A stretch of 10,721 nt of DNA, taken from contig ONPH01000040.1 of the NCBI GenBank assembly GCA_900319655.1, forward strand, positions 1 through 10,721, written 5' to 3'. The first letter of the stretch is position 1; the number at the start of each line of letters is the position of its first letter. The stretch comes from an uncultured Eubacteriales bacterium. Lineage in GTDB: Bacteria; Bacillota; Clostridia; Oscillospirales; Acutalibacteraceae. Shown here piece after piece: positions 1 to 10,721 of the stretch. Below the pieces are notes generated by a model. It saw only the letters and a list, made by a program, of their open reading frames with translations. It was not told the DNA's origin and did not search any database. The position numbers were made by a program, and so were the translations under genes.

Positions 1-280
1 CAACCTCTTTAATCCCCGGATAAACCTTGTTGCGGTACTTTCCCTCTTTGTCGTAGTAGGCGCGGTAAATTGCCGCTCCCTTCTCGGAGGTTTCCTCATC
101 AAGTCCACAGAGGTTTCTGAAGGTATCAATCAGCGGAGGTCCGATGTAGAGCGTGTAGTCGTCAAGGTTCGGCTTGGGCACATTCAGGGTATCGAGCGCG
201 TATTCAAGCGACATACGGATTCCCTCCGCGCTGGCGCTTACAGTACCGTCGAGGTCGAATAAAACATACTTATATTTCAT
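1..280 (-). CDS. HAD-family phosphatase (phosphoglycolate phosphatase-like), 5' part only
   Basis: The first 93 residues are present and the gene runs off the left edge of the window. The N-terminus carries HAD motif I (FDLDGT, residues 8-13), with the nucleophile Asp9 and acid/base Asp11, and the helical cap domain begins right after it. The stretch YIGPPL followed by a Tyr-rich helix and VYPGIKEV is typical of the phosphoglycolate phosphatase-like/5'-nucleotidase-like HAD group found in many Clostridia. Members are cytoplasmic Mg-dependent phosphatases acting on small phosphorylated metabolites; the substrate cannot be read from this fragment. The ATG start lies inside the end of the upstream thioesterase gene (11-bp overlap), so translation is probably coupled. 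HAD motifs II-IV are outside the window, so completeness cannot be judged. Family is secure; specificity is not. Confidence 0.88.
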   Translation of the reverse strand, partial: MKYKYVLFDLDGTVSASAEGIRMSLEYALDTLNVPKPNLDDYTLYIGPPLIDTFRNLCGLDEETSEKGAAIYRAYYDKEGKYRNKVYPGIKEV

Positions 281-653
281 CAAACTTACCGTCCGCCTTT
301 TTCTGGAATTTTTCAGCCTTTACGCTGACTCTCGTATGAGTTCCCTTAGCGATTTCTCCTGCGTTGTCGCGCGCAGTCAGCTCAAAGAAGAACAGCCTGC
401 CCTCAGTTTTTACAAGGCGTGCTTCCGCCTCTACCTCAGCGCCCAAGGGAGTTGGACTTGTGTGCTCAATGCTGATTGCCGTGCCGACCGTGGTCAGCTC
501 GTCGTTGTCAAGCACGTTTTGCGCAAGCTCAGCCGCCGCGCCCTCCATAAGAGCAGCTACGGCAGGAGTTGCCAGCACGTCAAGACTTCCGCTGCCGACA
601 ACGCTCGCGAGATTTTCTTTTTTTACGTTTAATTTTTTTGTCAGTGTTTCCAT
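270..653 (-). CDS. Hot-dog fold acyl-CoA thioesterase, FlK-like
   Basis: This 127-residue protein is the usual size for a single hot-dog domain. Spacing of key residues matches fluoroacetyl-CoA thioesterase FlK: Thr29, Glu37 and His64 sit at nearly the same intervals as the FlK triad Thr42/Glu50/His76, and Arg108 in GTHTR sits 44 residues after the His, as FlK Arg120 does. The family hydrolyses short or unusual acyl-CoA thioesters in the cytoplasm. The Phe residues that gate the FlK active site are not apparent at the aligned positions (Gly20, Ser23), so fluoroacetyl specificity is not implied. The start follows an AAGGA site about 8 nt upstream. The gene begins 11 nt after the DUF1858 stop and overlaps the HAD gene by 11 bp, placing it in the amylase-led operon. 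The C-terminus is Lys-rich. Physiological substrate unknown. Confidence 0.85.
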   Translation of the reverse strand: METLTKKLNVKKENLASVVGSGSLDVLATPAVAALMEGAAAELAQNVLDNDELTTVGTAISIEHTSPTPLGAEVEAEARLVKTEGRLFFFELTARDNAGEIAKGTHTRVSVKAEKFQKKADGKFDEI

Positions 654-664
654 AAATTATTTCC

Positions 665-889
665 TTATGAATTGTGCTCTGTAATCATCTTTTTGAGCTG
701 GTTAATTACGTCGTTTTCGGGGAAGTTGACCTTCTTGCTCACGTCTGCGATGTTCATATTTTTTATCATCATCTTGCCGACCGGGGTTTTGAGCACGCCG
801 AGTCTTCCGTCGAGCTTAACAAGCTCATCGGGCAGCCACGGATATTCCTTTAAGATGTCTGTAAGCTTTGTATTGCTGTTGATTTCCAT
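665..889 (-). CDS. DUF1858 domain protein, small
   Basis: A 74-residue protein that is essentially one DUF1858 domain. It opens with the family-typical pattern KLTDILKEYPWLPDEL, followed by a short conserved middle (KTPVGKMM, with a helix to Ile47) and a C-terminal helix (VINQLKKMI). DUF1858 domains occur alone or at the N-terminus of DUF438/hemerythrin-type and hybrid-cluster-associated proteins in anaerobes, often with a redox-sensing Cys-X-Cys; this copy has no cysteine, so a metal or redox site is unlikely here. The ATG follows a GAAGG site 6 nt upstream. It lies 18 nt after the amylase stop and 11 nt before the thioesterase, consistent with one transcript. Its biochemical role is unknown and the neighbours do not settle it. 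Confidence 0.82.
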   Translation of the reverse strand: MEINSNTKLTDILKEYPWLPDELVKLDGRLGVLKTPVGKMMIKNMNIADVSKKVNFPENDVINQLKKMITEHNS

Positions 890-907
890 AATATTACCTT
901 CTTTTGC

Positions 908-2560
908 TTATAACTCCGTAATCAGTATTCCGTCCGGCTTCAACTCGCCGTTTTCATAGCCGTTTTGGAACAGGATTTTTCCTGACGGAGCGGTCTTGTA
1001 CGAACGTTCCTGAGCGTTAATCAGTATATCCGCCTTGCCCGATTTAACATAGTGAATCAGGCGCGGATAGTCCTCTGTATAAATAAACTCAAATTCGTTG
1101 CTCTTAAAGTCCTTACGCGCGTTTCTAAGGTGAATAAGCGCGGAGATTTTGGACTTAATATCGTCATATTTTCCGCTGTCAACCTCGTTCCACGGCATTG
1201 TGGCGCGGTTGTAGGGAGAGTCAAAGCCCTTCATGGCAATCTCTGTTCCGTAGTAAATGCACGCCGAGCCGGGCAAGGTCATAATAACCGCGATTTTCTG
1301 CAAAAGCTCGTCGTTGTTCTTGCTAACCTCGGCAACACGCGGAGTGTCATGGGTATCGAGGAAGTTAAACAGTGCTCCTGTGACCTGCTCGGGGTAGAGC
1401 GTTCTGCAGTAGTTTAGCGCGTATTCAAAGTCCTTAAAGGTTTGGTTCGGATTTTTAAAGAAATCGGTCACGCATTCGGGAAGCGGATAGTTCATAACCG
1501 AGTCGTACTCTTTTCCGCCGAGCCACGGCAATGAATCCGTCCAAATTTCGCCGAGGAAATACACGTCGGGATTTACCTTTTTAACCGCCGAATTCAGGCT
1601 GTTTATAAAGGTGTGCGACACCTCGTCGCCCACGTCAAAGCGGATTCCGTCGATGTGCCAGTCCTTTGCCCAGTGAACGCACAATTTTGTAAAGTACTCG
1701 ACAACCTCGGGGTTGTTGTTTTCGGCGTTAATAAAGAACCAATCGTAATACCGCGAGCCCCTGCCCTTTTCGCAGACGTCCTTCCACGCGAAAAACTCTT
1801 GACCGCAGTGGTTAAACACAGCGTCGAGCATAACGCGGATACCCATTGTATGGGCGGTATCTACTAATTCTGTTAAATCTTCCTCGGTGCCGAAGTCGGG
1901 ATCAATCTGCCAATAATCAAAGGTGTTGTATTTGTGGTTTGAGCCTGACTTAAAAATCGGCGTAAGGTAAATTCCGCTGATTCCCAAATCCTTAAGATAG
2001 CCGAGACGTTCGGTTATTCCGCGGATATTTCCGCCGTAAATGTCGTTCCACTGCGGATTTGAAAAATCTCCCCATTTTCTGAATTTTTTATCCTCGGGAG
2101 AATTAGATGAACGGCAAAAGCGGTCGGGCATAATCTGATACCAAACGGTGTGCTTTACCCAGTTAGGCGGAGTTATAATGTCGGAAACATTCAGCCATGC
2201 GTACTTGAAGTACTGCATTGAAGCCAGGCTGTTCTCCTCGACGGGGCAGATTTTATTTTCGCACACAACAAAGGTATTTCCCTCGCTTTCAAGCTCAAAG
2301 TAATACCTCAGACGCTTATACCTCGGCTGCAGCTTAACCGTCCATATAATATGGTATTTAAGCTCTGCAAGCTTATGCATTTCGGTTTTAACACCGCTCC
2401 AATGCGGCTGTCTGCGAAGCTCGTGTATAAACGGATCCTCGCTGATAATAAATGCGCGGTCAACGTCCTTTGCGGTTTTTATATTTACCGTAACGGTGTT
2501 TTCGTCAGACGCATAGCAAAACTCAATAGTCGATCTGTGAGAAACTGCAGAAATATTCAT
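908..2560 (-). CDS. Intracellular GH13 alpha-amylase, neopullulanase/cyclomaltodextrinase-like
   Basis: A 550-residue enzyme without a signal peptide, so cytoplasmic. Residues 1 to about 120 form a CBM34-like N-terminal beta domain; the (beta/alpha)8 barrel starts near HTVWYQIMPDRF (residue 137). Conserved regions are visible: DAVFNH (region I, 246-251), GIRFDV with nucleophile Asp309, FLGEIW with acid/base Glu338, and FLDTHDTPR with Asp405. This layout is typical of GH13_20 enzymes that hydrolyse maltodextrins, cyclodextrins or pullulan inside the cell. The region V motif MPKLN, a GH13_20 signature, is missing: only NPEVVEYF remains between the WFF segment and region II. The start used here is the ATG at 2558-2560, 6 nt after AAGGAGG; an upstream in-frame start seven codons earlier would include that site in the coding region. 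First gene of the leftward operon. Class is secure; exact activity is not. Confidence 0.93.
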   Translation of the reverse strand: MNISAVSHRSTIEFCYASDENTVTVNIKTAKDVDRAFIISEDPFIHELRRQPHWSGVKTEMHKLAELKYHIIWTVKLQPRYKRLRYYFELESEGNTFVVCENKICPVEENSLASMQYFKYAWLNVSDIITPPNWVKHTVWYQIMPDRFCRSSNSPEDKKFRKWGDFSNPQWNDIYGGNIRGITERLGYLKDLGISGIYLTPIFKSGSNHKYNTFDYWQIDPDFGTEEDLTELVDTAHTMGIRVMLDAVFNHCGQEFFAWKDVCEKGRGSRYYDWFFINAENNNPEVVEYFTKLCVHWAKDWHIDGIRFDVGDEVSHTFINSLNSAVKKVNPDVYFLGEIWTDSLPWLGGKEYDSVMNYPLPECVTDFFKNPNQTFKDFEYALNYCRTLYPEQVTGALFNFLDTHDTPRVAEVSKNNDELLQKIAVIMTLPGSACIYYGTEIAMKGFDSPYNRATMPWNEVDSGKYDDIKSKISALIHLRNARKDFKSNEFEFIYTEDYPRLIHYVKSGKADILINAQERSYKTAPSGKILFQNGYENGELKPDGILITEL

Positions 2561-2592
2561 AATAGTCCTCCTTGATTGCACCGGTTATCTAT

Positions 2593-2621
2593 ATTTTAAC
2601 ATACAGATAAAAAATCGGCAA
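2593..2621 (-). promoter_or_regulatory. Sigma-A promoter for the amylase operon
   Basis: On the minus strand TTGCCG (2616-2621) is followed after exactly 17 bp by TAAAAT (2593-2598). It lies about 30 bp upstream of the amylase start and faces away from the GDPD promoter. Four of six bases match the -35 consensus and five of six the -10 consensus. Confidence 0.65.
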
Positions 2622-2651
2622 GTAATTTGTCGAATTAAACCTAATTTGTTA

Positions 2652-2680
2652 TTGAAGCATAAACATTTTAGTGATATAAT
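2652..2680 (+). promoter_or_regulatory. Sigma-A promoter for the GDPD gene
   Basis: TTGAAG (2652-2657), a 17-bp spacer and a perfect TATAAT (2675-2680) lie 31 bp before the GDPD start. The ribosome binding site AAGGGG follows at 2698-2703. The intergenic region shared with the amylase operon is about 150 bp and holds both promoters back to back; I see no clear palindromic operator between them. Confidence 0.75.
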
Positions 2681-2711
2681 CAAATTATCAAAAAAATAAG
2701 GGGACATCAAT

Positions 2712-4478
2712 ATGAAACTAAAAGAACGAATAACGCCATACGTTCAGGCAGTGCCGAAGATTTTAGGCTTCAAGCTGTTAACCACAATTGTCTTGGCGAT
2801 TATATCAAGCTTGCTTATGCTTTTGTCGAGGGCTTTGATGCGAAGCACGGGACGTGTGAGCGTAAGCAGCGGCGACTTTACGTTTTTGTTTACAACCTGG
2901 CAAGGCTATTTAATGATTGCGATAATGCTGGTTATCGTACTGCTTTATGTCGCGGTTGAGGTAAACGCGCTGATAATCTACATATCCAAAATTCTCCACG
3001 GCGAGAATCCGTCGGTGTTCAAGTGCATCGGCAAGGGTATTGCAGGGCTTAAAAAATACCTTAACTACCGCGGAATAATCATCATCCTTTACTGCACGCT
3101 TATTTCTCCGATGCTCGGACTCAGATTTTCAATCTCGCTTACGAGCACCTTCTACATTCCGAACTTTATCACCTCGGTAATCTTCAAAAACCCGTTTTAC
3201 ACCGCAGGCGTTATCGCGCTGGTAACGTTCCTTATCGTAGTAGGTATCATCTACTGCTTCATCCTGCACGGCGCTTTGATTGACGATATGAGCATTAAAG
3301 AGGCGAGTATTCAGTCAAGACAGTTCCTCAAAAAGAACTGGAAGAACTACATCTTTGAAATGCTCAGATTCCTGCTTATTTCTGCAATCGTAATAGCTGC
3401 AATGTACGCGCTGTTTATTCTCGTACCCAGCCTTATTATCGACGCGATTGCGACCGACGACAAGGCGGGAATGTTCGCAACAACACTGATTTCCACCTTT
3501 GCTCTTGCGCTGTTCTGCCTTTTCGAGGTGCTCTGGTCGGCTTACTTAATTATGAAGCTTACCGTGCTTTACCACAATTATAAGAGTGAGGGTGAGTGGA
3601 AATACACAAGACCTGCGAAAAAAGCTCATCCTGTGCTTATCATCTTCGCTGTTCTCGGCGTTTTGTTGATAGTAGGTATTTCAGCCGTATACACGTACTA
3701 CTTTGATGATATTATACCGGCGTTCACACACGCTCAGTACGTAGGCCACCGCGCAGGCGGCGTTGAAGCTCCCGAGAACACCGTTAAGGGAATTGAAGTC
3801 GCGGCTGAGCTCAACGCTTTCGGCTGTGAAATTGACATTCAGCGCACCTCGGACGGCTACTATGTAGTTAACCACGACAACGACTTTAAGCGCGTTGCCG
3901 GAGTTGCCAAAAAGCCGTCGGAAATGACGCTTGCAGAGGTTAAACAGCTTAAGGTTGACGGCGAGCCCGTACCGACCTATGAGGAAATGCTCGACGCCAG
4001 CAAGGACAAGGTAACGCTCTTTGTTGAGCTAAAGGGCGAGACCGCCGACGAAAAGATGGCGGACGACGCCGTTAAGGCAATCAAGGAAAAGGGTATGGAG
4101 AAGCAGGCGGTATTAATCTCGCTCAAATACGATATTCTTGAATATATCGAGCAGAAATATCCCGAGATGGAAACAGGCTACCTTGCGTTCTTCTCATTCG
4201 GCGACATCGAGGAAATGCCGTTTGATTACCTCGCTTTAGAGGAAGAAATCTCCACCGACGACGCGATTGAGAATATCCACGCCAAAAACAAAAAGGTTAT
4301 GGTTTGGACGGTTAACGATCCCGAAAACATCAAGACCTTCCTCAACAGCGAGGCAGACGCTATTATCACCGACGAGGTTAAGAAGTCAAAGGAAATTTCC
4401 GACGACCTCAAAAAGCGCACTCCGAGAGAGATTATCTACGACCTTTTCGGCACATGGACTGTTGATTTAGCAAAATAA
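2712..4478 (+). CDS. Membrane-anchored glycerophosphodiester phosphodiesterase (GPDPase_memb + GDPD)
   Basis: This 588-residue protein has two parts. Residues about 15-330 are a GPDPase membrane domain with around seven hydrophobic segments (near 20-40, 66-92, 120-137, 163-188, 218-246, 256-285 and 307-330). Residues about 342-560 are a GDPD TIM-barrel. Catalytic positions are present: His346-Arg347 (GHRAGG), Glu373 and Asp375 (CEIDIQ), and the general acid/base His388 (VVNHDN); Glu439 and the late WTVN motif near 532 also fit the family. GDPDs cleave glycerophosphodiesters to glycerol-3-phosphate and an alcohol. The membrane-fused form is typical of Firmicutes and may act on lipid or lipoteichoic-acid-derived substrates. 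With seven segments and an inside N-terminus the catalytic domain would face outward (inference). It is a single-gene unit with its own promoter and terminator. Confidence 0.94.
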   Translation: MKLKERITPYVQAVPKILGFKLLTTIVLAIISSLLMLLSRALMRSTGRVSVSSGDFTFLFTTWQGYLMIAIMLVIVLLYVAVEVNALIIYISKILHGENPSVFKCIGKGIAGLKKYLNYRGIIIILYCTLISPMLGLRFSISLTSTFYIPNFITSVIFKNPFYTAGVIALVTFLIVVGIIYCFILHGALIDDMSIKEASIQSRQFLKKNWKNYIFEMLRFLLISAIVIAAMYALFILVPSLIIDAIATDDKAGMFATTLISTFALALFCLFEVLWSAYLIMKLTVLYHNYKSEGEWKYTRPAKKAHPVLIIFAVLGVLLIVGISAVYTYYFDDIIPAFTHAQYVGHRAGGVEAPENTVKGIEVAAELNAFGCEIDIQRTSDGYYVVNHDNDFKRVAGVAKKPSEMTLAEVKQLKVDGEPVPTYEEMLDASKDKVTLFVELKGETADEKMADDAVKAIKEKGMEKQAVLISLKYDILEYIEQKYPEMETGYLAFFSFGDIEEMPFDYLALEEEISTDDAIENIHAKNKKVMVWTVNDPENIKTFLNSEADAIITDEVKKSKEISDDLKKRTPREIIYDLFGTWTVDLAK

Positions 4479-4483
4479 ATCAC

Positions 4484-4515
4484 AAAACTCCGAGCCATGC
4501 GGTTCGGAGTTTTTT
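4484..4515 (+). terminator. Intrinsic terminator after the GDPD gene
   Basis: A 10-bp perfect stem (AAAACTCCGA at 4484-4493 with TCGGAGTTTT at 4504-4513) can extend inward by a G-U and two C-G pairs around an ATGC loop, and runs into a six-T tract. It begins 5 nt after the GDPD stop. On the minus strand only four Ts follow the stem, so it may terminate the convergent MmcQ/YjbR transcript weakly. Confidence 0.9.
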
Positions 4516-4519
4516 CTGC

Positions 4520-5179
4520 CTATTTTTTGTTTCCCTCAACAATCGCGTAGCTGTCGTCGAGCAGTTTTTCGATATGCGGAATATCCGCTTCCCTGTCGAG
4601 GAGAATTGAAATCCAGTATTATTTATTCATATGGTACGACGGAAAGTAGTGGATGTTGTCGATAAGCTTCGGGATGTCGTCGGGCAAAACCTTTAGGTTA
4701 AGCACGTTGATTTTACCTTCCCTTTCAACGCCGAGATACCTGTACGGAATCAGCATAAAAAGCCCGTACCATTTGTGCTTTTTCGCGGTGTTCAGCGTGT
4801 GGTATTCCTTTAAATATCCCCACGGCGCTTCGGGAACAGTGCCGTGCTTTTCCTTGACATATTCAAGCAAAACTGCCTTTACGTCGGCAAGCTCAAAGGA
4901 AGTGCTTAAAATATCATCAAGTATATCCTCAACATTCGCGCGGATTTGACCGACAAATCCGCCGTCCGCGCTTGTGTTGAACGGAAGGTACAGCTCACCT
5001 TCAGGCTCTTCATAAACATTTACTTCAATATTTTCTCCGCTGATTTCAAACACGGCGTAAAAGCCGTTTTCGCTCAGCGGTTTTTTAATTGTATAGCCGT
5101 TTGCGGTTTTGTTAAAGCCGTTTTGCTCCGCCTTTGAGGGGCTGAAAATATATTTGTCAAAAACGCTGTTGTAATTCAC
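4520..5179 (-). pseudogene. MmcQ/YjbR-family (DUF419) protein, interrupted by in-frame TAA
   Basis: From a GTG start the frame gives 186 residues and stops at TAA (4619-4621) directly after YFPSYHMNK. In clostridial MmcQ/YjbR proteins this is followed by a lysine or similar residue and then WISI. The same frame continues past the stop for 32 codons as YWISILLD ... LLDDSYAIVEGNKK and ends at TAG (4520-4522), so the expected C-terminal helix is intact after a single nonsense codon. The full product would be about 219 residues, the normal length for the two-part clostridial form: an N-terminal alpha/beta domain of about 95 residues followed by the YjbR double-wing DNA-binding-like domain. The family's cellular role is not established. 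A single substitution such as AAA or GAA to TAA would explain it; a sequencing error is possible. The gene has its own promoter, and its weak start region (AAAGTGG) is not canonical. Confidence 0.85.
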
Positions 5180-5202
5180 TGCACCACTTTCTTTCCGCTA
5201 TT

Positions 5203-5231
5203 ATTATATGATATAGCATGTAGAAATGCAA
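5203..5231 (-). promoter_or_regulatory. Sigma-A promoter for the MmcQ/YjbR gene
   Basis: On the minus strand TTGCAT (5226-5231), a 17-bp spacer and a perfect TATAAT (5203-5208). It begins only 3 bp after the stop of the upstream esterase gene. No convincing terminator separates the two, so read-through from the esterase operon is also possible. Confidence 0.72.
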
Positions 5232-5234
5232 GCG

Positions 5235-6635
5235 TTAATCGGCGGAGATTGTAAGCGTTGTGTCGCCCTTTCCGAGAAGGTCTTTAAGCTCGGTTTCGGA
5301 CTTATCCTTAATCTTCCCGAGCCTTGTGTAATCCCATGTGTTCGAGCCGTAAAACACGGAAATTTGATTGCCCGAATACAGCACGATATCTCCTGCTTCT
5401 GTGGTGATTTTCTCGTCACTATTCGGCAGGGTTTTGCCGAGATTACCCACCTGCTCAAATCCGCCGTACATTGACATCTTAATTTCAAGCGGAGAAGTCT
5501 TTACAAGCTCCTTTAGCGCGTTTACCGCTTCATTATCCTGCCACTCTACCTCAACCGCGGTATCACCGATTTTTACGGTGAGATCATCGGATTTGCTCTC
5601 TGCCGTCGCCGTCTGTGTAGTAACCGCGGTTGCCGCTTGTTCGGCGGTTTTAGAGGGCGACGACCTGAAAATCTTATTTAGGTAGTTATAAAAGCACTGC
5701 TGCCAAAAGTCGCTGTCGTGCTCGTAGCCTTCGACCAAATCGGTCTGGTTTTTAACGCCCATTTTGTTCAGCACATCGCGGTAATACAGGGTGCAGTCGA
5801 TGTTCCACGGATCCTTACTGCCGACGGACATATAAAGGTAATACGGAGTGTTAGCCTCGGTCGGCTTCGGGAACTCCTGCATATACGGCGTGTTCCAGAA
5901 AGTGCCCTTGTAGTACTCGGTCGGGATAACCCCCGTGTCGGGCGCAAAAGCCCCGATATAGCCGAACTTGTCGAGCCACTTAAAGCCTGTGCACAGCGAC
6001 TTTGCGCCGCCCTCGGACATTCCTGCAACTGCGGTGTTCTCTCTGCCGGTAAGGACATTGTAGTTCTTCTCAATAAACGGCATAAGATCAACGGCAACGT
6101 CGTCAATCGCCTTGTCGTAGATATACCTCAACTGTTCGTCAGACTTGCTGTCCTTATCAGCCTGCTTGTCGGTGTACATATCCACGTTTACGGTGATTTG
6201 CGGAACAACAAGACCGTCGTGAAGCATATTTCCGTAGAGCAAAGTCAGGTATGAATCGTCGTCAATCTGATTGTCGTGACTTCCGCCGAATCCGTGGAAA
6301 ACGTACATAACAGGATATTTTTTGCTCTCATCATAACCTGCCGGAAGCAAAATATTGCACTGCTTGTCATCTCCTGCGGTGGACGAATAATAGGTCACAT
6401 CCTTAAGCACCTTGCCGTAGTCTACATCCGAGCGCTTTTTGAACATATCCTCAGAAATATCATAGCGGTTTTCGGTCGCGTAGGGGTCAAAATTTTCGCT
6501 GCTTGCAGTCGTTGAAGCGGCTTCCGTTTTAGCTTCGGAAGAATCCGCTGACGAATTCTGCGAGGTCGAGCAAGCGCCGAAAATGAGCATACACGACAAA
6601 ACCACTGCTGTCCCAACAATACCCTTTTTAATCAT
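5235..6635 (-). CDS. Lipoprotein CE1-like esterase fused to a C-terminal cyclophilin-like domain
   Basis: The 466-residue product has a Lys-rich start, a hydrophobic helix and a lipobox-like FGAC ending at Cys22, so it is probably a surface lipoprotein. The -3 residue Phe is less usual. A Ser/Ala/Thr-rich linker spans about 23-48. Residues about 75-325 form an esterase domain of the feruloyl/acetyl esterase (CE1, esterase D) type: HGFGG oxyanion region at 114-118, nucleophile Ser207 in GMSEGG, likely Asp275 (GSKDP) and His306 (GYEHD). A second Ala/Thr-rich linker (328-350) leads to a cyclophilin-like fold domain (about 352-464) with the family hallmarks MYGGFEQVG, LP..DE.ITTE.GDIVLY and a WDYTRLGK motif. 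Such enzymes remove acyl groups from plant polysaccharides; the role of the second domain is unknown. Third gene of the operon, 12 nt after the hydrolase, with an AGAGG site before the ATG. Confidence 0.9.
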   Translation of the reverse strand: MIKKGIVGTAVVLSCMLIFGACSTSQNSSADSSEAKTEAASTTASSENFDPYATENRYDISEDMFKKRSDVDYGKVLKDVTYYSSTAGDDKQCNILLPAGYDESKKYPVMYVFHGFGGSHDNQIDDDSYLTLLYGNMLHDGLVVPQITVNVDMYTDKQADKDSKSDEQLRYIYDKAIDDVAVDLMPFIEKNYNVLTGRENTAVAGMSEGGAKSLCTGFKWLDKFGYIGAFAPDTGVIPTEYYKGTFWNTPYMQEFPKPTEANTPYYLYMSVGSKDPWNIDCTLYYRDVLNKMGVKNQTDLVEGYEHDSDFWQQCFYNYLNKIFRSSPSKTAEQAATAVTTQTATAESKSDDLTVKIGDTAVEVEWQDNEAVNALKELVKTSPLEIKMSMYGGFEQVGNLGKTLPNSDEKITTEAGDIVLYSGNQISVFYGSNTWDYTRLGKIKDKSETELKDLLGKGDTTLTISAD

Positions 6636-6647
6636 AAATTTTTCCTC

Positions 6648-7643
6648 TTAATTAATGTTATCGCGGATGAAGTCCTCGATTTTATCAAACGGAATAACGT
6701 CCAAATTATCGTACAAATCGGTGTGAACCGCGCCGGGGATAATCATAAGCTCCTTGTTATCGGTGTACTTGCTGTCCTCGGTCATCGCCTTGTAGGCGTC
6801 CTTAGCGAAGTAGCAGGAATGAGCCTTGTCACCGTGAATCATCAGCACCGCCGAGCGGATTTCGTTTGAATATTTTAAAATCGGCTGGTTCATAAACGAC
6901 AGACAGCCCAAGGTGTTCCAGCCCTCGTTTGAATTGAGCGACCTTTCGTGATATGCCCTGCCCTTGTAGTACTCGCTGTAGTCCTTTACAAAGAACGGCA
7001 CGTCCTCGGGAACAGGCAACGGCAGACATCCGCCTGCACGCGAGTACTCGCCGTTTTTATATTCCTCAGTTCTGAGGTTATTGAGCGCGGTTTTTCTTTC
7101 AAAGCGCTTTTCCTCGCTGTCCTCACTGTCAAAATATCCGTTGGCGTTAACGCGAGTCATATCGTACATTGTGGAAACTATCGTCGCCTTAATTCTCGTG
7201 TCGAGCGCGGCGGTGTTTAGAGCCATTCCGCCCCAGCCGCAAATGCCGATAATGCTGATTTTATCCGCGTCTACATTGTCCTGAACCGACAGAAAATCAA
7301 CCGCCGCCTGAAAGTCCTCGGTGTTGATGTCGGGAGAAGCCATATATCTCGGAAATCCTCCGCTCTCGCCTGTAAAGGACGGGTCAAATGCGACTGTGAT
7401 AAATCCGCGCTCAGCCATAATCTGCGCGTACAAGCCCGAGCACTGCTCCTTAACCGCGCCGAACGGACCGCTTACCGCGATTGCCGGAAGCTTTCCCTCC
7501 GCGTTCTTAGGAACGTACATATCCGCCGCGAGGGTTATGCCGTAGCGGTTGACGAAGGTAACCTTGCAGTGGTCAACCTTATCGCTTTTTTCAAAGGTCT
7601 TATCCCAATTTTGAGTGAGCTTAAGCTCTGCTGTTTTCATCAT
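6648..7643 (-). CDS. Alpha/beta hydrolase, YcjY/dienelactone hydrolase-like, Cys nucleophile
   Basis: A 331-residue cytoplasmic protein with no signal peptide. The nucleophile elbow is GICGWGG, which puts Cys135 where most esterases have Ser, as in dienelactone hydrolases. The other triad members are likely Asp272 (IHGDKAHS) and His307 (GAVHTDLYD). SGPFG (58-62) is the probable oxyanion-hole strand, and residues about 165-250 form an inserted lid-like helical segment. The family cleaves ester or lactone bonds in small molecules; the substrate here is unknown. The start is the first of two adjacent ATGs, 7 nt after GGAGG. That ribosome binding site lies within the last codons of the acetyltransferase gene, whose stop is 2 nt upstream, so the two genes are translationally coupled. 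No signs of damage. Confidence 0.9.
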   Translation of the reverse strand: MMKTAELKLTQNWDKTFEKSDKVDHCKVTFVNRYGITLAADMYVPKNAEGKLPAIAVSGPFGAVKEQCSGLYAQIMAERGFITVAFDPSFTGESGGFPRYMASPDINTEDFQAAVDFLSVQDNVDADKISIIGICGWGGMALNTAALDTRIKATIVSTMYDMTRVNANGYFDSEDSEEKRFERKTALNNLRTEEYKNGEYSRAGGCLPLPVPEDVPFFVKDYSEYYKGRAYHERSLNSNEGWNTLGCLSFMNQPILKYSNEIRSAVLMIHGDKAHSCYFAKDAYKAMTEDSKYTDNKELMIIPGAVHTDLYDNLDVIPFDKIEDFIRDNIN

Positions 7644-7645
7644 AA

Positions 7646-8221
7646 CTATTCCTCCAAATCTATATTCTTTATGAACCTCGCAGGAACTCCGCCTGCAATT
7701 GTATTTGCCTGTACATCCTTGCTAACTACCGCGCCTGCCGCGATAATCGCGCCGTCACCGATTGTCACGCCCGGCAGGATTGTGACGTTCGCGCCTATCC
7801 AGACGTTCTTTCCGATAACAACGGGCTTTGGTATAAGATTTGCGCGTTTCTTTGGATTTTTGTGGTGGTTGAGCGTAGCGATCACGGTCTTGGGGCCGAT
7901 TAAGCTTCCGTCGCCTATCGTGATTCCGCCCTGATTCTGAAACTGACAGCCTGCGTTTATAAAGACATTTTTGCCGAGCTTAATGTTCTTTCCGCAGTCG
8001 GTGTAAAACGGCGGAAACATATACGCGCCTTCGGGGAACTCTCTGCCCGTAAGCCTTGTCATCAGCTCTCCGATTTCCTCGGGAGTGTGGTAGCTGTTGT
8101 TGAGCTCTGAGGTAATCTTCATCGCCTCGTTGCTCAGGTACGTCATATGAAGATGAATCTCGCTTCCCGCGGTAACCTCCGCTCCGCTGTCCATTATCCT
8201 GATAAATTCCTCTGTAGTCAT
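7646..8221 (-). CDS. Maltose/galactoside-type O-acetyltransferase, LbH fold
   Basis: A 191-residue protein, the normal length for the LacA/NodL/maltose O-acetyltransferase family. The N-terminal helical segment (about 1-60, with the TGREFPEG hinge) leads into a left-handed beta helix of hexapeptide repeats such as [24 protein letters not shown] and VTIGDG. His119 in LNHHKNP aligns with the catalytic His of the family, and the C-terminal [10 protein letters not shown] matches the usual acetyl-CoA-binding end. These enzymes move acetyl from acetyl-CoA to the 6-hydroxyl of sugars in the cytoplasm; the acceptor here is not known. The ATG follows GAGGG by 6 nt. It is the first gene of a three-gene operon and is divergent from the LysR regulator, which suggests that regulator controls it. 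Confidence 0.93.
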
Positions 8222-8244
8222 ACTTTTCCCTCATTTCTGATTTA

Positions 8245-8273
8245 ATTATATACCTACGCGGCACAAATAGCAA
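8245..8273 (-). promoter_or_regulatory. Sigma-A promoter for the acetyltransferase-hydrolase-esterase operon
   Basis: On the minus strand TTGCTA (8268-8273), a 17-bp spacer and a perfect TATAAT (8245-8250). The likely transcription start is near 8238. The -35 box overlaps one copy of the ATAGCAAAT direct repeat. Confidence 0.75.
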
Positions 8274-8318
8274 ATACTTATATTAAATAGTTAATTATGC
8301 TTTACAAGCATAGCAAAT
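8267..8318. repeat. ATAGCAAAT direct repeat in the LysR divergent region
   Basis: Two identical 9-bp copies at 8267-8275 and 8310-8318 are 43 bp apart, close to four helical turns. One overlaps the -35 box of the operon promoter; the other touches the right arm of the palindrome and lies between the lysR -35 and -10 boxes. They may be regulator half-sites, but chance in AT-rich DNA is not excluded. Confidence 0.45.
8296..8312. promoter_or_regulatory. Putative LysR operator, perfect inverted repeat
   Basis: TATGCTT-TAC-AAGCATA is a perfect 7-bp inverted repeat with a 3-bp centre and contains the LysR-type T-N11-A pattern. Its centre (8304) is about 66 bp upstream of the predicted start of the minus-strand operon, the classical position of the LysR recognition site. 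It also covers the -35 box (8301-8306) of the lysR promoter, which would fit negative autoregulation. Confidence 0.7.
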
Positions 8319-8329
8319 TGATGTATAAT
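8301..8329 (+). promoter_or_regulatory. Sigma-A promoter for the lysR gene
   Basis: TTTACA (8301-8306), a 17-bp spacer and a perfect TATAAT (8324-8329), 18 bp before the start codon. The -35 box lies inside the palindromic operator. The transcript leader would be only about 12 nt, with GGGTG (8336-8340) as a weak ribosome binding site. Confidence 0.75.
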
Positions 8330-8347
8330 TAATTCGGGTGATAAAAT

Positions 8348-9202
8348 ATGGAATTTAGAGTTTTGCAGTACTTTTTGGCGGTTACGCGCGAGGGAAATAT
8401 CTCTGCCGCGGCGCAGTCGCTGAACCTTTCTCAGCCGTCGCTGTCGCGCCAGCTTAAGGACTTGGAGGACGAGCTCGGCGCAAAGCTGTTTATCAGAGGC
8501 AACAGGCGCATTGAGCTCACCGAGGAAGGCTTGATTTTGCGCAAACGCGCAGGCGAGATTATGCAGCTTGTGGAGCTGACGGAAAGCGAAATTTCCGAGG
8601 TAAAGAACAATATCTCGGGCACTCTGAGCATCGGCGCAGGTGAGTCGCTCTCTATGCACCGCATAACCGAGGTTTTCCGCCGTCTTAAGGAGAATTATCC
8701 CGACATTCGCCTTAACGTTGTCAGCGGCGACACCGAGGATTTGCAGGACAGGCTCGACCGCGGACTGCTCGACTTTGCGCTGATTTTTACCGACTTTGAC
8801 CGCAACGCCTACCACCACCTCACGCTTGAGGAAAAGGAGATTTTCGGCGTTATTATGCGCAGGGACGACGCACTTGCCGAGAAGGAATACATCACCGTGA
8901 AGGACTTGTACGACAAGCCGTTGATTGTATCGCGCGCGAACGGCTTGGATATTTTCAGCGGCTCGCAGGCTCGCAGACTTCAGGTTGCGGCAACTTATAA
9001 CCTGCTCTACAACGCCTCGCTGATGGTCGAGGACGGCATCGGCGTCGCGATTTCATTTGACGGACTTGTTGACACCTCGGAAAATTCAAGCCTCTGTTTC
9101 CGTCCGCTGTACCCCGAAATTTCCGTCAGTCCGTCGTTGATTTGGAAGCGACACCAAAATCTGTCGATTATCTCTCAGCTTTTTATAAAGCAGTTGAGTT
9201 AA
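8348..9202 (+). CDS. LysR-family transcriptional regulator
   Basis: A 284-residue protein, close to the usual 290-300. Residues 1-60 are the winged helix-turn-helix: MEFRVLQYFLAV start, recognition region ISAAAQSLNLSQPSLSRQLKDLE (18-40), and LGAKLFIRGNRRIELTEEG as the wing. A linker helix (about 65-88) leads to the substrate-binding domain (about 90-280), which starts with GTLSIGAGES and contains the RLDRGLLDFALI segment common in the family. Effector unknown. It is transcribed divergently from the acetyltransferase operon with a shared 126-bp region containing a palindromic operator, so it very likely controls that operon and itself. The ATG is chosen because it gives the canonical LysR N-terminus. 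No clear terminator follows the stop; the pnuC promoter begins 6 bp later. Confidence 0.95.
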   Translation: MEFRVLQYFLAVTREGNISAAAQSLNLSQPSLSRQLKDLEDELGAKLFIRGNRRIELTEEGLILRKRAGEIMQLVELTESEISEVKNNISGTLSIGAGESLSMHRITEVFRRLKENYPDIRLNVVSGDTEDLQDRLDRGLLDFALIFTDFDRNAYHHLTLEEKEIFGVIMRRDDALAEKEYITVKDLYDKPLIVSRANGLDIFSGSQARRLQVAATYNLLYNASLMVEDGIGVAISFDGLVDTSENSSLCFRPLYPEISVSPSLIWKRHQNLSIISQLFIKQLS

Positions 9203-9207
9203 CCGTA

Positions 9208-9236
9208 TTGCCAAACCAAAAAATTCGTGCTATAAT
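9208..9236 (+). promoter_or_regulatory. Extended -10 sigma-A promoter for pnuC
   Basis: TTGCCA (9208-9213), a 17-bp spacer and a perfect TATAAT (9231-9236), with TG at the extended -10 position (9228-9229). It starts 6 bp after the lysR stop codon. The expected transcript begins near 9243, giving a leader of about 100 nt. Confidence 0.78.
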
Positions 9237-9242
9237 ACATTC

Positions 9243-9343
9243 ATAATAAATCTGCCACCGGGTAGGAATTGCCATGAGCATTCGCTGCGCATCGTTAGGT
9301 CTTTGAAGATGTGCATCGGATGTTTATTTTTTTGGAGGACATT
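9243..9343 (+). ncRNA. Structured pnuC leader, candidate riboswitch or attenuator, class not recognised
   Basis: Three successive hairpins can be drawn. Hairpin 1 pairs CTGCC (9252-9256) with GGTAG (9261-9265) around a 4-nt loop. Hairpin 2 pairs GAAT-GC (9266-9272, U9270 bulged) with GCATTC (9278-9283). Hairpin 3 pairs GCGCATC (9287-9293) with GATGTGC (9308-9314) around a 14-nt loop. An alternative short pairing of CATC (9290-9293) with GATG (9319-9322) would abut a U-rich run at 9323-9333, just before the GGAGG at 9334-9338. pnuC genes in other Firmicutes can be under NAD-responsive RNA control (pnuC motif, NAD-II), but I cannot match this leader to that consensus by eye. It does not carry recognisable TPP, FMN or preQ1 core sequences. 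Confidence 0.4.
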
Positions 9344-9895
9344 ATGAAGCGGTTTTTAAATTACTTTACCACGTTTGAAAAGCTGTTGTGGTGCGCGTCG
9401 GTTTTGATGATAACGGTTTCGTTTATAATATTTGACAGGAGCAATTTTCTTACGCTCGCCGCCTCGATTATCGGCGTAACCTCGCTGATTTTTATCGCCA
9501 AGGGCAACCCAATCGGGCAGATAATGATGATTATTTTCAGCCTGTTTTACGGCTGGATTTCATTTTCCTACGCCTACTACGGAGAGATTTTTACCTACCT
9601 CGGTATGTCCTTGCCGATGGCGGCTATGACGCTTGTATCGTGGCTTAAGCATCCATATGAGGGTAAAAAGAGCGAGGTCGAGGTCAGCTCACTGAGCAAA
9701 GGCAAAAAGAAAATTATGGTAATACTGACAGTTGTTGTCACGGCGGCGTTTTACTTCATCCTAAAATACTTCAACACCGCAAATTTGATACCGAGTACAA
9801 TCTCGGTGACGACAAGCTTTGTCGCGGCATACCTGACCTTTACCTCATTCCAGTCAACGCCCAGTTTCTCCTTCTTGAGGTCAAAGAAACAGTAA
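9344..9895 (+). CDS. pnuC: PnuC-family nicotinamide riboside transporter, 3' end replaced at junction
   Basis: The ATG at 9344 sits 5 nt after GGAGG; an upstream in-frame GTG (9311) is rejected because it would place the ribosome binding site inside the gene. Residues 1-166 are a normal PnuC N-terminal part: NYFTTFEKLLW opening, hydrophobic segments near 16-30, 36-52, 58-78, 83-100 and 124-142, the GNPIGQ..MI..SLFYG motif of family helix 3, and the start of the SFVAAYLTF helix. PnuC proteins are about 210-250 residues with seven helices and take up nicotinamide riboside by facilitated diffusion; thiamin- or riboflavin-type relatives exist, so substrate is inferred. After Phe166 (9841) the last 17 codons, TSFQSTPSFSFLRSKKQ, resemble no PnuC; they are antisense to a Bacteroidales peptidase gene. 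The gene is therefore truncated by the junction. Confidence 0.88.
   Translation: MKRFLNYFTTFEKLLWCASVLMITVSFIIFDRSNFLTLAASIIGVTSLIFIAKGNPIGQIMMIIFSLFYGWISFSYAYYGEIFTYLGMSLPMAAMTLVSWLKHPYEGKKSEVEVSSLSKGKKKIMVILTVVVTAAFYFILKYFNTANLIPSTISVTTSFVAAYLTFTSFQSTPSFSFLRSKKQ
9829..9845. other. Junction between Clostridia-like and Bacteroidales-like DNA
   Basis: Reading rightward, PnuC coding stays convincing through YLTF (ends 9841). Reading leftward on the other strand, the S41 peptidase stays convincing through VDWNEV (to 9841) and perhaps a few residues further. The two frames are both compatible over roughly 9829-9843, which suggests a short shared sequence at the join. No insertion sequence, integrase, tRNA or attachment-site repeat is visible here. 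Confidence 0.85.
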
Positions 9896-10053
9896 TGCTC
9901 ATCCATGATGGTCCACAGAGCCATGAAGTTTCCCTGAGGCGTGTTCACGAACTCACGGTCCGGTGCCTCGCCGTTCCACGAGCATGAGACGGGAAGCAGT
10001 GCCATAAACAGCGCCGCCGTCACAACTGCCAGTTTTTTTAGTCTTCTGCTCAT
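9841..10053 (-). pseudogene. S41-family peptidase lipoprotein (Bacteroidales type), first 71 codons only
   Basis: The start ATG (10051-10053) overlaps the stop of the upstream DUF3316 gene in an ATGA arrangement. Residues 1-24 are a lipoprotein signal: SRRLKK, a hydrophobic core and PVSC with acceptor Cys24. The following segment, NFMALWTIMDEHYCFFD...GVDWNEV (residues 42-71), is the characteristic N-terminal helical region of Bacteroidales S41 (C-terminal-processing-like) peptidases exported to the envelope. The PDZ and catalytic Ser/Lys domains, normally some 250-400 further residues, are missing because the coding sequence stops at the junction and the frame then runs antisense through pnuC. 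Whether the gene is really truncated in a genome depends on whether the junction is real; more likely it is intact elsewhere and cut only in this assembly. Confidence 0.8.
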
Positions 10054-10721
10054 CTGTCCCACTTTTTAGTCTGATACCTCATGGCAAAACCTACGGTAGC
10101 CATAGTGTTCAGGAGGAAACGCGAATGACCTCCAAGATTGTTTTTCAGTCCGTCACAGGTGAATCCCACCCTCAGGCGTTTATCCTTGATGGGCAGCACC
10201 AGTGCCACCTGCTGCGTGAACGCAAGGTTGTTGAACGGATGTATAAAGTGTAATGCCTTTCCCAGGCCGCCGTTGTACGCCAGCATGTAATAATAGGGCT
10301 GGTCATAGTCCGGTGCCATGCTGAATCCGGCAAGAGGCGCAAAGAAAGTTGCCTGCAGCGCCATGTCATACCTGAACAATGAGAAACGGAAGGTATTGTC
10401 TGCGCAGACACCTCCGCCAAAGTAACCCTCCATGTTTACGGGATTGTTGGAGTTCTGCTGATTGTAGAGCACGCCCAGTTCCAACATAACGGCAGGACCA
10501 GCCAGAAAATCACACTTGCTGTTCTTTACCGCATGCCACATGAATCCCTCATAGGTGCGGCCGCTGAATTCCAGTGTGAGCCCTCCTCCAAGAGGATTCT
10601 CCATGTAACTGAAATAGAGGTCTGAATGGAGACGGCCCTGGCGGAAAAACCTGTGGGGTTCATAGCCTGCCCAACCGTCATTCTCCCAACCAAACGCAAA
10701 ACCGCTGTAGGTTGAGCCTGA
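10050..10721 (-). CDS. DUF3316-family protein (Bacteroidales), N-terminus beyond window
   Basis: The frame is open to the right edge, giving 223 residues plus stop; an internal Met near 10604 is not the start because the conserved reading continues upstream as SGSTYSGFAFGWEND and so on to the edge. The composition (alternating aromatic/polar strands, many Gly, Tyr and Phe) and the segments FLAGPAVMLELGVLYN, NSNNPVN, APLAGFSM and QPYYYMLAYNGG match DUF3316, a Bacteroidetes-specific family that looks like an outer-membrane or envelope beta-barrel. Function is unknown. It ends with an ATGA overlap into the S41 peptidase lipoprotein gene, so the two are co-transcribed and translationally coupled in the source organism. 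The signal peptide, if any, lies outside the window. Confidence 0.78.
   Translation of the reverse strand, partial: SGSTYSGFAFGWENDGWAGYEPHRFFRQGRLHSDLYFSYMENPLGGGLTLEFSGRTYEGFMWHAVKNSKCDFLAGPAVMLELGVLYNQQNSNNPVNMEGYFGGGVCADNTFRFSLFRYDMALQATFFAPLAGFSMAPDYDQPYYYMLAYNGGLGKALHFIHPFNNLAFTQQVALVLPIKDKRLRVGFTCDGLKNNLGGHSRFLLNTMATVGFAMRYQTKKWDR

What the first reader, a model, noticed from the sequence alone, without database searches (positions are those of the whole stretch)
9829..9845. Abrupt Clostridia-to-Bacteroidales switch inside two genes, probably an assembly chimera
A plus-strand pnuC of Firmicutes type loses its last helices exactly where a minus-strand Bacteroidales S41 peptidase loses its catalytic domains. 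Neither gene has a natural boundary here, the reading frames of both fit a shared stretch of about 15 bp, and there is no mobile-element machinery. Phyla this distant rarely recombine within coding sequence, so a misjoin on short shared sequence is favoured over horizontal transfer. Anything inferred about synteny across this point should be discarded.
Basis: partly seen in the sequence, partly recalled or inferred. Interest (0 to 1): 0.7.

Follow-up and report, generated by a model that had tools for sequence, protein, structure and literature searches.

The report
Misjoined contig of two gut bacteria
The last 900 bases of this assembled piece of a Clostridia-type genome belong to an unrelated Bacteroidaceae bacterium and were almost certainly glued on during assembly at a short stretch the two genomes share by chance, so it is an artefact rather than biology.

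Summary
The window is one whole contig of a fragmented genome bin. Positions 9822-10721 are 98.9% identical to a Bacteroidaceae genome bin from sheep reticulum, where the S41 peptidase and its neighbour are intact. On the left, five database proteins 96-98% identical to the window's PnuC continue normally where the window switches. The two sources overlap over about 19-20 bp (9822-9840/9841; the given 9829-9845 is slightly off). A composition model without homology puts the switch at 9828. The right part scores lower than all 88 comparison segments of the left genome and inside the Bacteroidaceae range. The missing parts of both genes were not found elsewhere in the incomplete bin, and the chimeric S41 frame was found only in this contig. 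Reads were not available, so a library chimera or real rearrangement is not formally excluded; a misjoin is strongly favoured. In passing, the pnuC leader (9250-9341) is a kissing-loop RNA with the architecture and gene partners of guanidine-IV riboswitches, so this 'pnuC' may be guanidine-related.

The parts
1..9841 (.). native part of the contig (genome G000, contig C33; Clostridia-type)
   Evidence: Markov log-likelihood ratio positive in all 11 successive 881-bp chunks (1-9691), with a model trained without the window; pnuC relatives in same-genus genomes
9250..9341 (+). pnuC leader RNA: two hairpins with a kissing loop and a terminator-like U run; guanidine-IV-like
   Evidence: 11 of 22 pairs with double changes and 98.7% of 460 cells paired in 21 sequences; model R1 hit; no Rfam match at E<=1 in the whole window
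9344..9841 (+). 5' part of a PnuC-family transporter gene, native portion
   Evidence: PF04973 profile 2-127 of 175; 96-98% identical intact proteins P0001, P0002, P0004, P0005, P0006
9842..9895 (+). spurious tail of the pnuC frame read in Bacteroidaceae DNA
   Evidence: does not align with PnuC homologues; DNA identical to L042
9822..9841 (.). shared stretch of 19-20 bp at which the two sources are joined
   Evidence: identity to L042 begins at 9822; PnuC homology ends at the Phe codon 9839-9841; composition change point 9828
9822..10721 (.). foreign Bacteroidaceae segment, running to the contig end
   Evidence: 98.9% identical to JAFXMB010000131.1, isolate RGIG6538; part 9841-10721 lower than 88 of 88 segments of the left genome
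9822..10062 (-). N-terminal 80 or so residues of a Bacteroidaceae S41/tricorn-type peptidase
   Evidence: 96% identical to residues 1-81 of the 356-aa protein in L042; the S41 domain (residues 157-326 there) is missing
10050..10721 (-). DUF3316-like protein (outer-membrane type by inference), 5' end cut off by the contig end
   Evidence: 17.8 bits, below the 24.4 cut-off; intact 305-aa counterpart in L042 passes the cut-off (35.2 bits)

Best explanation
This is an assembly chimera. Two genomes share about 20 bp by chance: the PnuC codons around AAYLTF, and a reverse-strand part of the S41 peptidase gene. A short-read assembler walked from the pnuC gene of one into the Bacteroidaceae S41 gene of the other through that stretch, and the composite contig was binned with the first genome because 92% of it comes from there. 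Shown: two sources, the overlap, intact counterparts, the composition switch. Inferred: that both organisms were in one sample, and that the assembler rather than library preparation or a real rearrangement made the join.
For: Right part 98.9% identical to a Bacteroidaceae MAG with S41 and the neighbouring gene intact. All 8 Bacteroidales loci found align with the window's right part from 9822-9830 onward and not before. Five database proteins 96-98% identical to the window's PnuC, plus one at 87%, have normal C-termini where the window switches. Composition change point 9828 without homology. Right part lower than 88 of 88 segments of the left genome (11 of them from the window's own left part) and inside the range of 239 Bacteroidaceae segments. 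The missing parts of S41 and pnuC are not found in the genome, nor the rest of L042 except a 65-68% match on C57. In the protein search the chimeric S41 frame is a singleton from this contig (P0121, contig length 10721), with 6 other hits of 60-75% identity covering 67-76% of the query. Chance-shared 20-mers are expected between genomes of this size: about 6.7 by uniform arithmetic. In a benchmark with Illumina reads MEGAHIT gave 22.15 chimeric contigs per genome and SPAdes 2.63 (PMC11261854, passages).
Against: No reads, coverage or long-read data were available. One other near-identical record, P0003 (178 aa, 25,730-bp contig), also ends at the same codon (YLTS). That could be a contig end at the same ambiguous graph node, but its DNA was not seen. 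The overlap of at most 20 bp is one base shorter than the 21-mer that common assemblers start from (recalled), so the exact graph step is not reconstructed. The genome is 80.67% complete and some of its contigs read N where I took stretches, so absence from it is limited evidence.
Confidence: 0.95

Rival explanations
1. Library-preparation chimera: template switching or ligation joined two DNA fragments at the shared stretch before sequencing, and the assembler kept it.
For: A shared stretch of about 20 bp at the join would also fit template switching.
Against: A contig normally needs several supporting reads, and a single chimeric molecule gives few (recalled). The segment continues for 880 bp past the join, longer than a typical short-read fragment (recalled).
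Confidence: 0.03
2. Real rearrangement: Bacteroidaceae DNA recombined into the pnuC gene of the other genome through about 20 bp of microhomology.
For: The join is base-precise. One other near-identical PnuC record stops at the same codon (P0003).
Against: Ends inside two unrelated genes in opposite orientation. No mobile-element family in the lists for the proteins scanned. The segment runs to the contig end with no second junction. The rest of the Bacteroidaceae locus was not found in the genome, apart from a 65-68% match on C57. No match in phage or plasmid records at megablast sensitivity and no exact 46-bp junction in viral contigs.
Confidence: 0.02

Closest known systems
Chimeric (misjoined) contigs of short-read metagenome assembly
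   Same: Two taxa in one contig, switch at a short shared sequence near the contig end, both genes cut, intact counterparts elsewhere; such contigs were counted per genome in a benchmark (PMC11261854, passages seen).
   Different: Nothing specific; only the read-level confirmation is missing here.
PnuC family (PF04973 / TIGR01528)
   Same: The frame passes both curated cut-offs (75.4 vs 27.3 bits; 48.3 vs 42.45 bits).
   Different: Last part of the domain missing through the join. The leader RNA points to guanidine rather than nicotinamide riboside (inference).
Bacteroidaceae S41/tricorn-type peptidase
   Same: 96% identical over residues 1-81 to the 356-aa protein in L042.
   Different: Catalytic domain not present in this contig.
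Guanidine-IV riboswitch (GGAM-1; PMC7736828, passages, section 12 part 1 and section 16 seen)
   Same: Two hairpins with a kissing loop, the second hairpin followed by a U run, upstream of PnuC and MATE genes.
   Different: Consensus nucleotides could not be compared letter by letter (figures not held); ligand binding untested; no Rfam hit.

Membership tests
Assembly chimera | Each side matches a different genome at high identity | tested here: met
   Right 98.9% to RGIG6538 at DNA level; left 96-98% at protein level to intact PnuC records of unnamed origin
Assembly chimera | Intact loci exist without the join | tested here: met
   S41 356 aa in L042; P0001, P0002, P0004, P0005, P0006
Assembly chimera | Shared sequence at the join | tested here: met
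   19-20 bp, 9822-9840/9841
Assembly chimera | Composition switch at the join | tested here: met
   Change point 9828; 0 of 88 left-genome segments as low as the right part
Assembly chimera | No spanning reads or uneven coverage | not testable with these tools
   No reads held
Horizontally acquired island | Integration machinery or a second boundary | tested here: not met
   No mobile family in the lists for the proteins scanned; segment runs to the contig end, so a second boundary beyond it cannot be seen
Horizontally acquired island | Same join in an independent genome or mobile-element record | tested here: inconclusive
   None in viral contigs, phages, plasmids; chimeric S41 frame a singleton. 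Collections are incomplete and 90% clustering could hide a PnuC-side duplicate
Guanidine-IV riboswitch (leader of pnuC, in passing) | Two hairpins, kissing loop, terminator-like hairpin | tested here: met
   Covariation in 21 sequences, including one sequence with a compensated kissing-loop pair; the structure was drawn from these same sequences
Guanidine-IV riboswitch (leader of pnuC, in passing) | Occurs upstream of MATE and PnuC genes | tested here: met
   28 of 30 best loci PnuC, 2 unresolved; of 20 hand-picked other loci 10 were scanned: 7 MATE, 1 PnuC, 1 EamA, 1 SfLAP
Guanidine-IV riboswitch (leader of pnuC, in passing) | Binds guanidine | not testable with these tools
   needs in-line probing

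The most novel reading that the evidence does not exclude
A real inter-phylum recombination: Bacteroidaceae DNA entered a pnuC gene of another phylum in a gut community through about 20 bp of chance homology, in a strain related to the one whose PnuC record (P0003) also ends at this codon.
Probability: 0.02. Interest if true: 0.6.

Novelty: not a real feature. Interest (0 to 1): 0.08.

Why it matters
The join should be cut before any use of this contig: the S41 and DUF3316-type genes must not be credited to this genome, and the PnuC C-terminus in this record is not real. If real, it would be a rare case of microhomology-driven exchange between phyla inside coding sequence.

Tried and rejected
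A natural gene boundary or C-terminal variant of PnuC was rejected: the tail 9842-9895 aligns with none of the 9 PnuC homologues and is identical to S41-coding DNA. Other G000 contigs holding the missing pieces: none found. A mobile element: no match. A known Rfam RNA for the pnuC leader: none at E<=1 in the whole window; the short stretch alone gave 4 hits far below their gathering scores, the best mir-5595 at E 0.7. NAD+-II riboswitch: described from Streptococcus (PMC7749635, part 1 of 4 read; PMC8632094, passages). The leader's gene partners led to guanidine-IV instead.

Technical missteps: one search printed a misregistered base comparison (only its BLAST table is used; redone). One search's DNA alignment had the wrong strand for some loci and is not used. 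One search crashed on masked sequence and was redone. My notebook checkpoint says 10 of 20 G000 stretches were fully N and gives the overlap as 18-19 bp; the output shows 9 of 20 fully N plus 2 partly, and the overlap is 19-20 bp.

Full report
What the window is. The window is contig C33, positions 1-10721, taken here to be the whole contig, of a genome bin of 1,598,845 bases in 226 contigs, 80.67% complete, 1.11% contaminated; the protein search gives the contig length as 10721 (P0121). The 10 window proteins scanned against NCBIfam hit ordinary families (LysR regulator, GH13-type, acetyltransferase, esterases, PnuC) or nothing, and no mobile-element family is in the lists shown.

The right part. 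A scan of one genome per species found 8 loci encoding relatives of the DUF3316-type protein, all titled Bacteroidales or Bacteroidaceae MAGs; 3 of the 8 titles name a ruminant gut site. The best, JAFXMB010000131.1 (isolate RGIG6538, sheep reticulum; L042), is 98.9% identical over window 9822-10721: 10 mismatches in 900, with an exact run from 9822 to 10032. In L042 the S41 gene is whole (356 aa, L042 6660-7730) and follows the DUF3316-type gene (305 aa, 5755-6672) with a short overlap. The Peptidase_S41 domain (residues 157-326) and the end of the Tricorn_C1 domain are what the window lacks. The other 7 loci align with the window at 65-75% DNA identity, also starting at 9822-9830.

The left part. 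The PnuC frame is native. Of 58 relatives searched (59 genomes less the own one) 29 had a match. In 26 of these the best match is 45-62% identical, in an uninterrupted frame of 217-285 aa, and stops at query residues 166-178, the join being at residue 166. Of the 8 best protein hits, 5 (P0001, P0002, P0004, P0005, P0006; 96-98% identical) and P0007 (87%) continue past YLT[FL] into CRSPYYALAYA and a normal C-terminus. P0003 stops at YLTS and P0008 is frame-shifted. That search scored 8000 candidates and listed 120. The window instead reads YLTFTSFQSTPS, which is Bacteroidaceae DNA.

The join. Bacteroidaceae identity begins at 9822; PnuC homology ends with the Phe codon 9839-9841. The overlap is 19 bp, or 20 if the third base of that codon is also shared. 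The reverse strand of the S41 gene thus happens to encode AAYLTF in the PnuC frame. By uniform arithmetic about 27 shared 19-mers and 7 shared 20-mers are expected between genomes of 1.6 and 2.3 Mb; in the stretches held, more were found than expected (3 20-mers against 0.03), perhaps through composition and conserved genes (not looked into). Such overlaps are therefore available to an assembler.

Homology-free test. Fourth-order Markov models were trained on stretches of G000 and of the RGIG6538 genome (G059). 9 of the 20 G000 stretches read N throughout and gave nothing, and 2 hold some N. One of the 20 G059 stretches (C79, which matched a window gene) was left out. The model puts the switch at 9828. 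The 881-bp right part scores -0.078 per base: 0 of 88 left-genome segments are that low, while 72 of 239 Bacteroidaceae segments are as low or lower. The 88 include 11 segments of the window's own left part.

Absence tests. A full-length relative of PnuC and the intact S41 protein each found only this contig in G000. The 9,747-bp L042 found this contig plus two pieces of 65 and 68% identity on C57, both within one L042 frame that looks like glycyl-tRNA synthetase (recalled). In G059 the window finds the 900 bp plus pieces of 73 and 70% identity at 7118-7607 and 6883-7010. No match in phage or plasmid records, and no exact junction in viral contigs. The chimeric S41 frame is a singleton from this contig; 6 other proteins (60-75% identical) cover 67-76% of the query. 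Only proteins of similar length were candidates there, and clustering at 90% could hide a duplicate of the PnuC-side chimera.

How it arose. The sheep-reticulum MAG carries an RGIG isolate name, and a large ruminant MAG study used MEGAHIT and IDBA-UD per sample and MEGAHIT for co-assembly (PMC8199421, passages; that text does not contain the string RGIG, so the link is inferred). Whether G000 comes from it is unknown. In a benchmark MEGAHIT made 22.15 chimeric contigs per genome against 2.63 for SPAdes (PMC11261854, passages). A misjoin on the shared stretch needs nothing unusual. A library chimera or a real rearrangement would need spanning reads to be shown, and cannot be excluded without them.

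Seen on the way. Directly upstream of pnuC lies a conserved RNA (9250-9341). In 21 distinct sequences 98.7% of 460 cells pair, 11 of 22 pairs show changes on both sides, and one kissing-loop pair is compensated in one sequence. 0 of 500 shuffles reach four of the five measures and 1 of 500 the fifth; the structure was drawn from these same sequences, which leans in its favour. The loci came from searches with the pnuC region. A covariance model finds it in 136 of 394 genomes of the order, the own one included. Of the 30 best loci, 28 have PnuC next; in 2 my script found no PnuC frame. Of 20 further loci that I picked, mostly for weaker scores, 10 were scanned and 7 are MATE, 1 PnuC, 1 EamA, 1 SfLAP. 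This architecture and these partners are those of the guanidine-IV riboswitch, whose authors already proposed that its PnuC- and MATE-class genes export guanidine (PMC7736828, passages, section 12 part 1 and section 16). It is a known kind and not counted as novelty.

Noticed in passing
window 9250-9341 (+): Structured leader RNA of pnuC (two hairpins, kissing loop, terminator-like U run) with no Rfam match at E<=1; architecture and gene partners fit the guanidine-IV riboswitch, so this PnuC-family gene is probably guanidine-related.
   Followed up: partly
P0003, PnuC record on a 25,730-bp contig: A 98%-identical PnuC record ends YLTS at the same codon as the join; its DNA was not seen, so it may be a contig end at the same ambiguous stretch.
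   Followed up: no
window 7118-7607 and G059:C79:504-993: The alpha/beta-hydrolase-type gene of the left part is 73% identical in DNA to a stretch of the Bacteroidaceae MAG; the matching contig has Bacteroidaceae composition, so a shared or transferred gene is possible.
   Followed up: partly
L137 1722-2402: The guanidine-IV-like RNA precedes an SfLAP-family (PF11139) membrane protein, a family not named in the passages read of the guanidine-IV paper.
   Followed up: no
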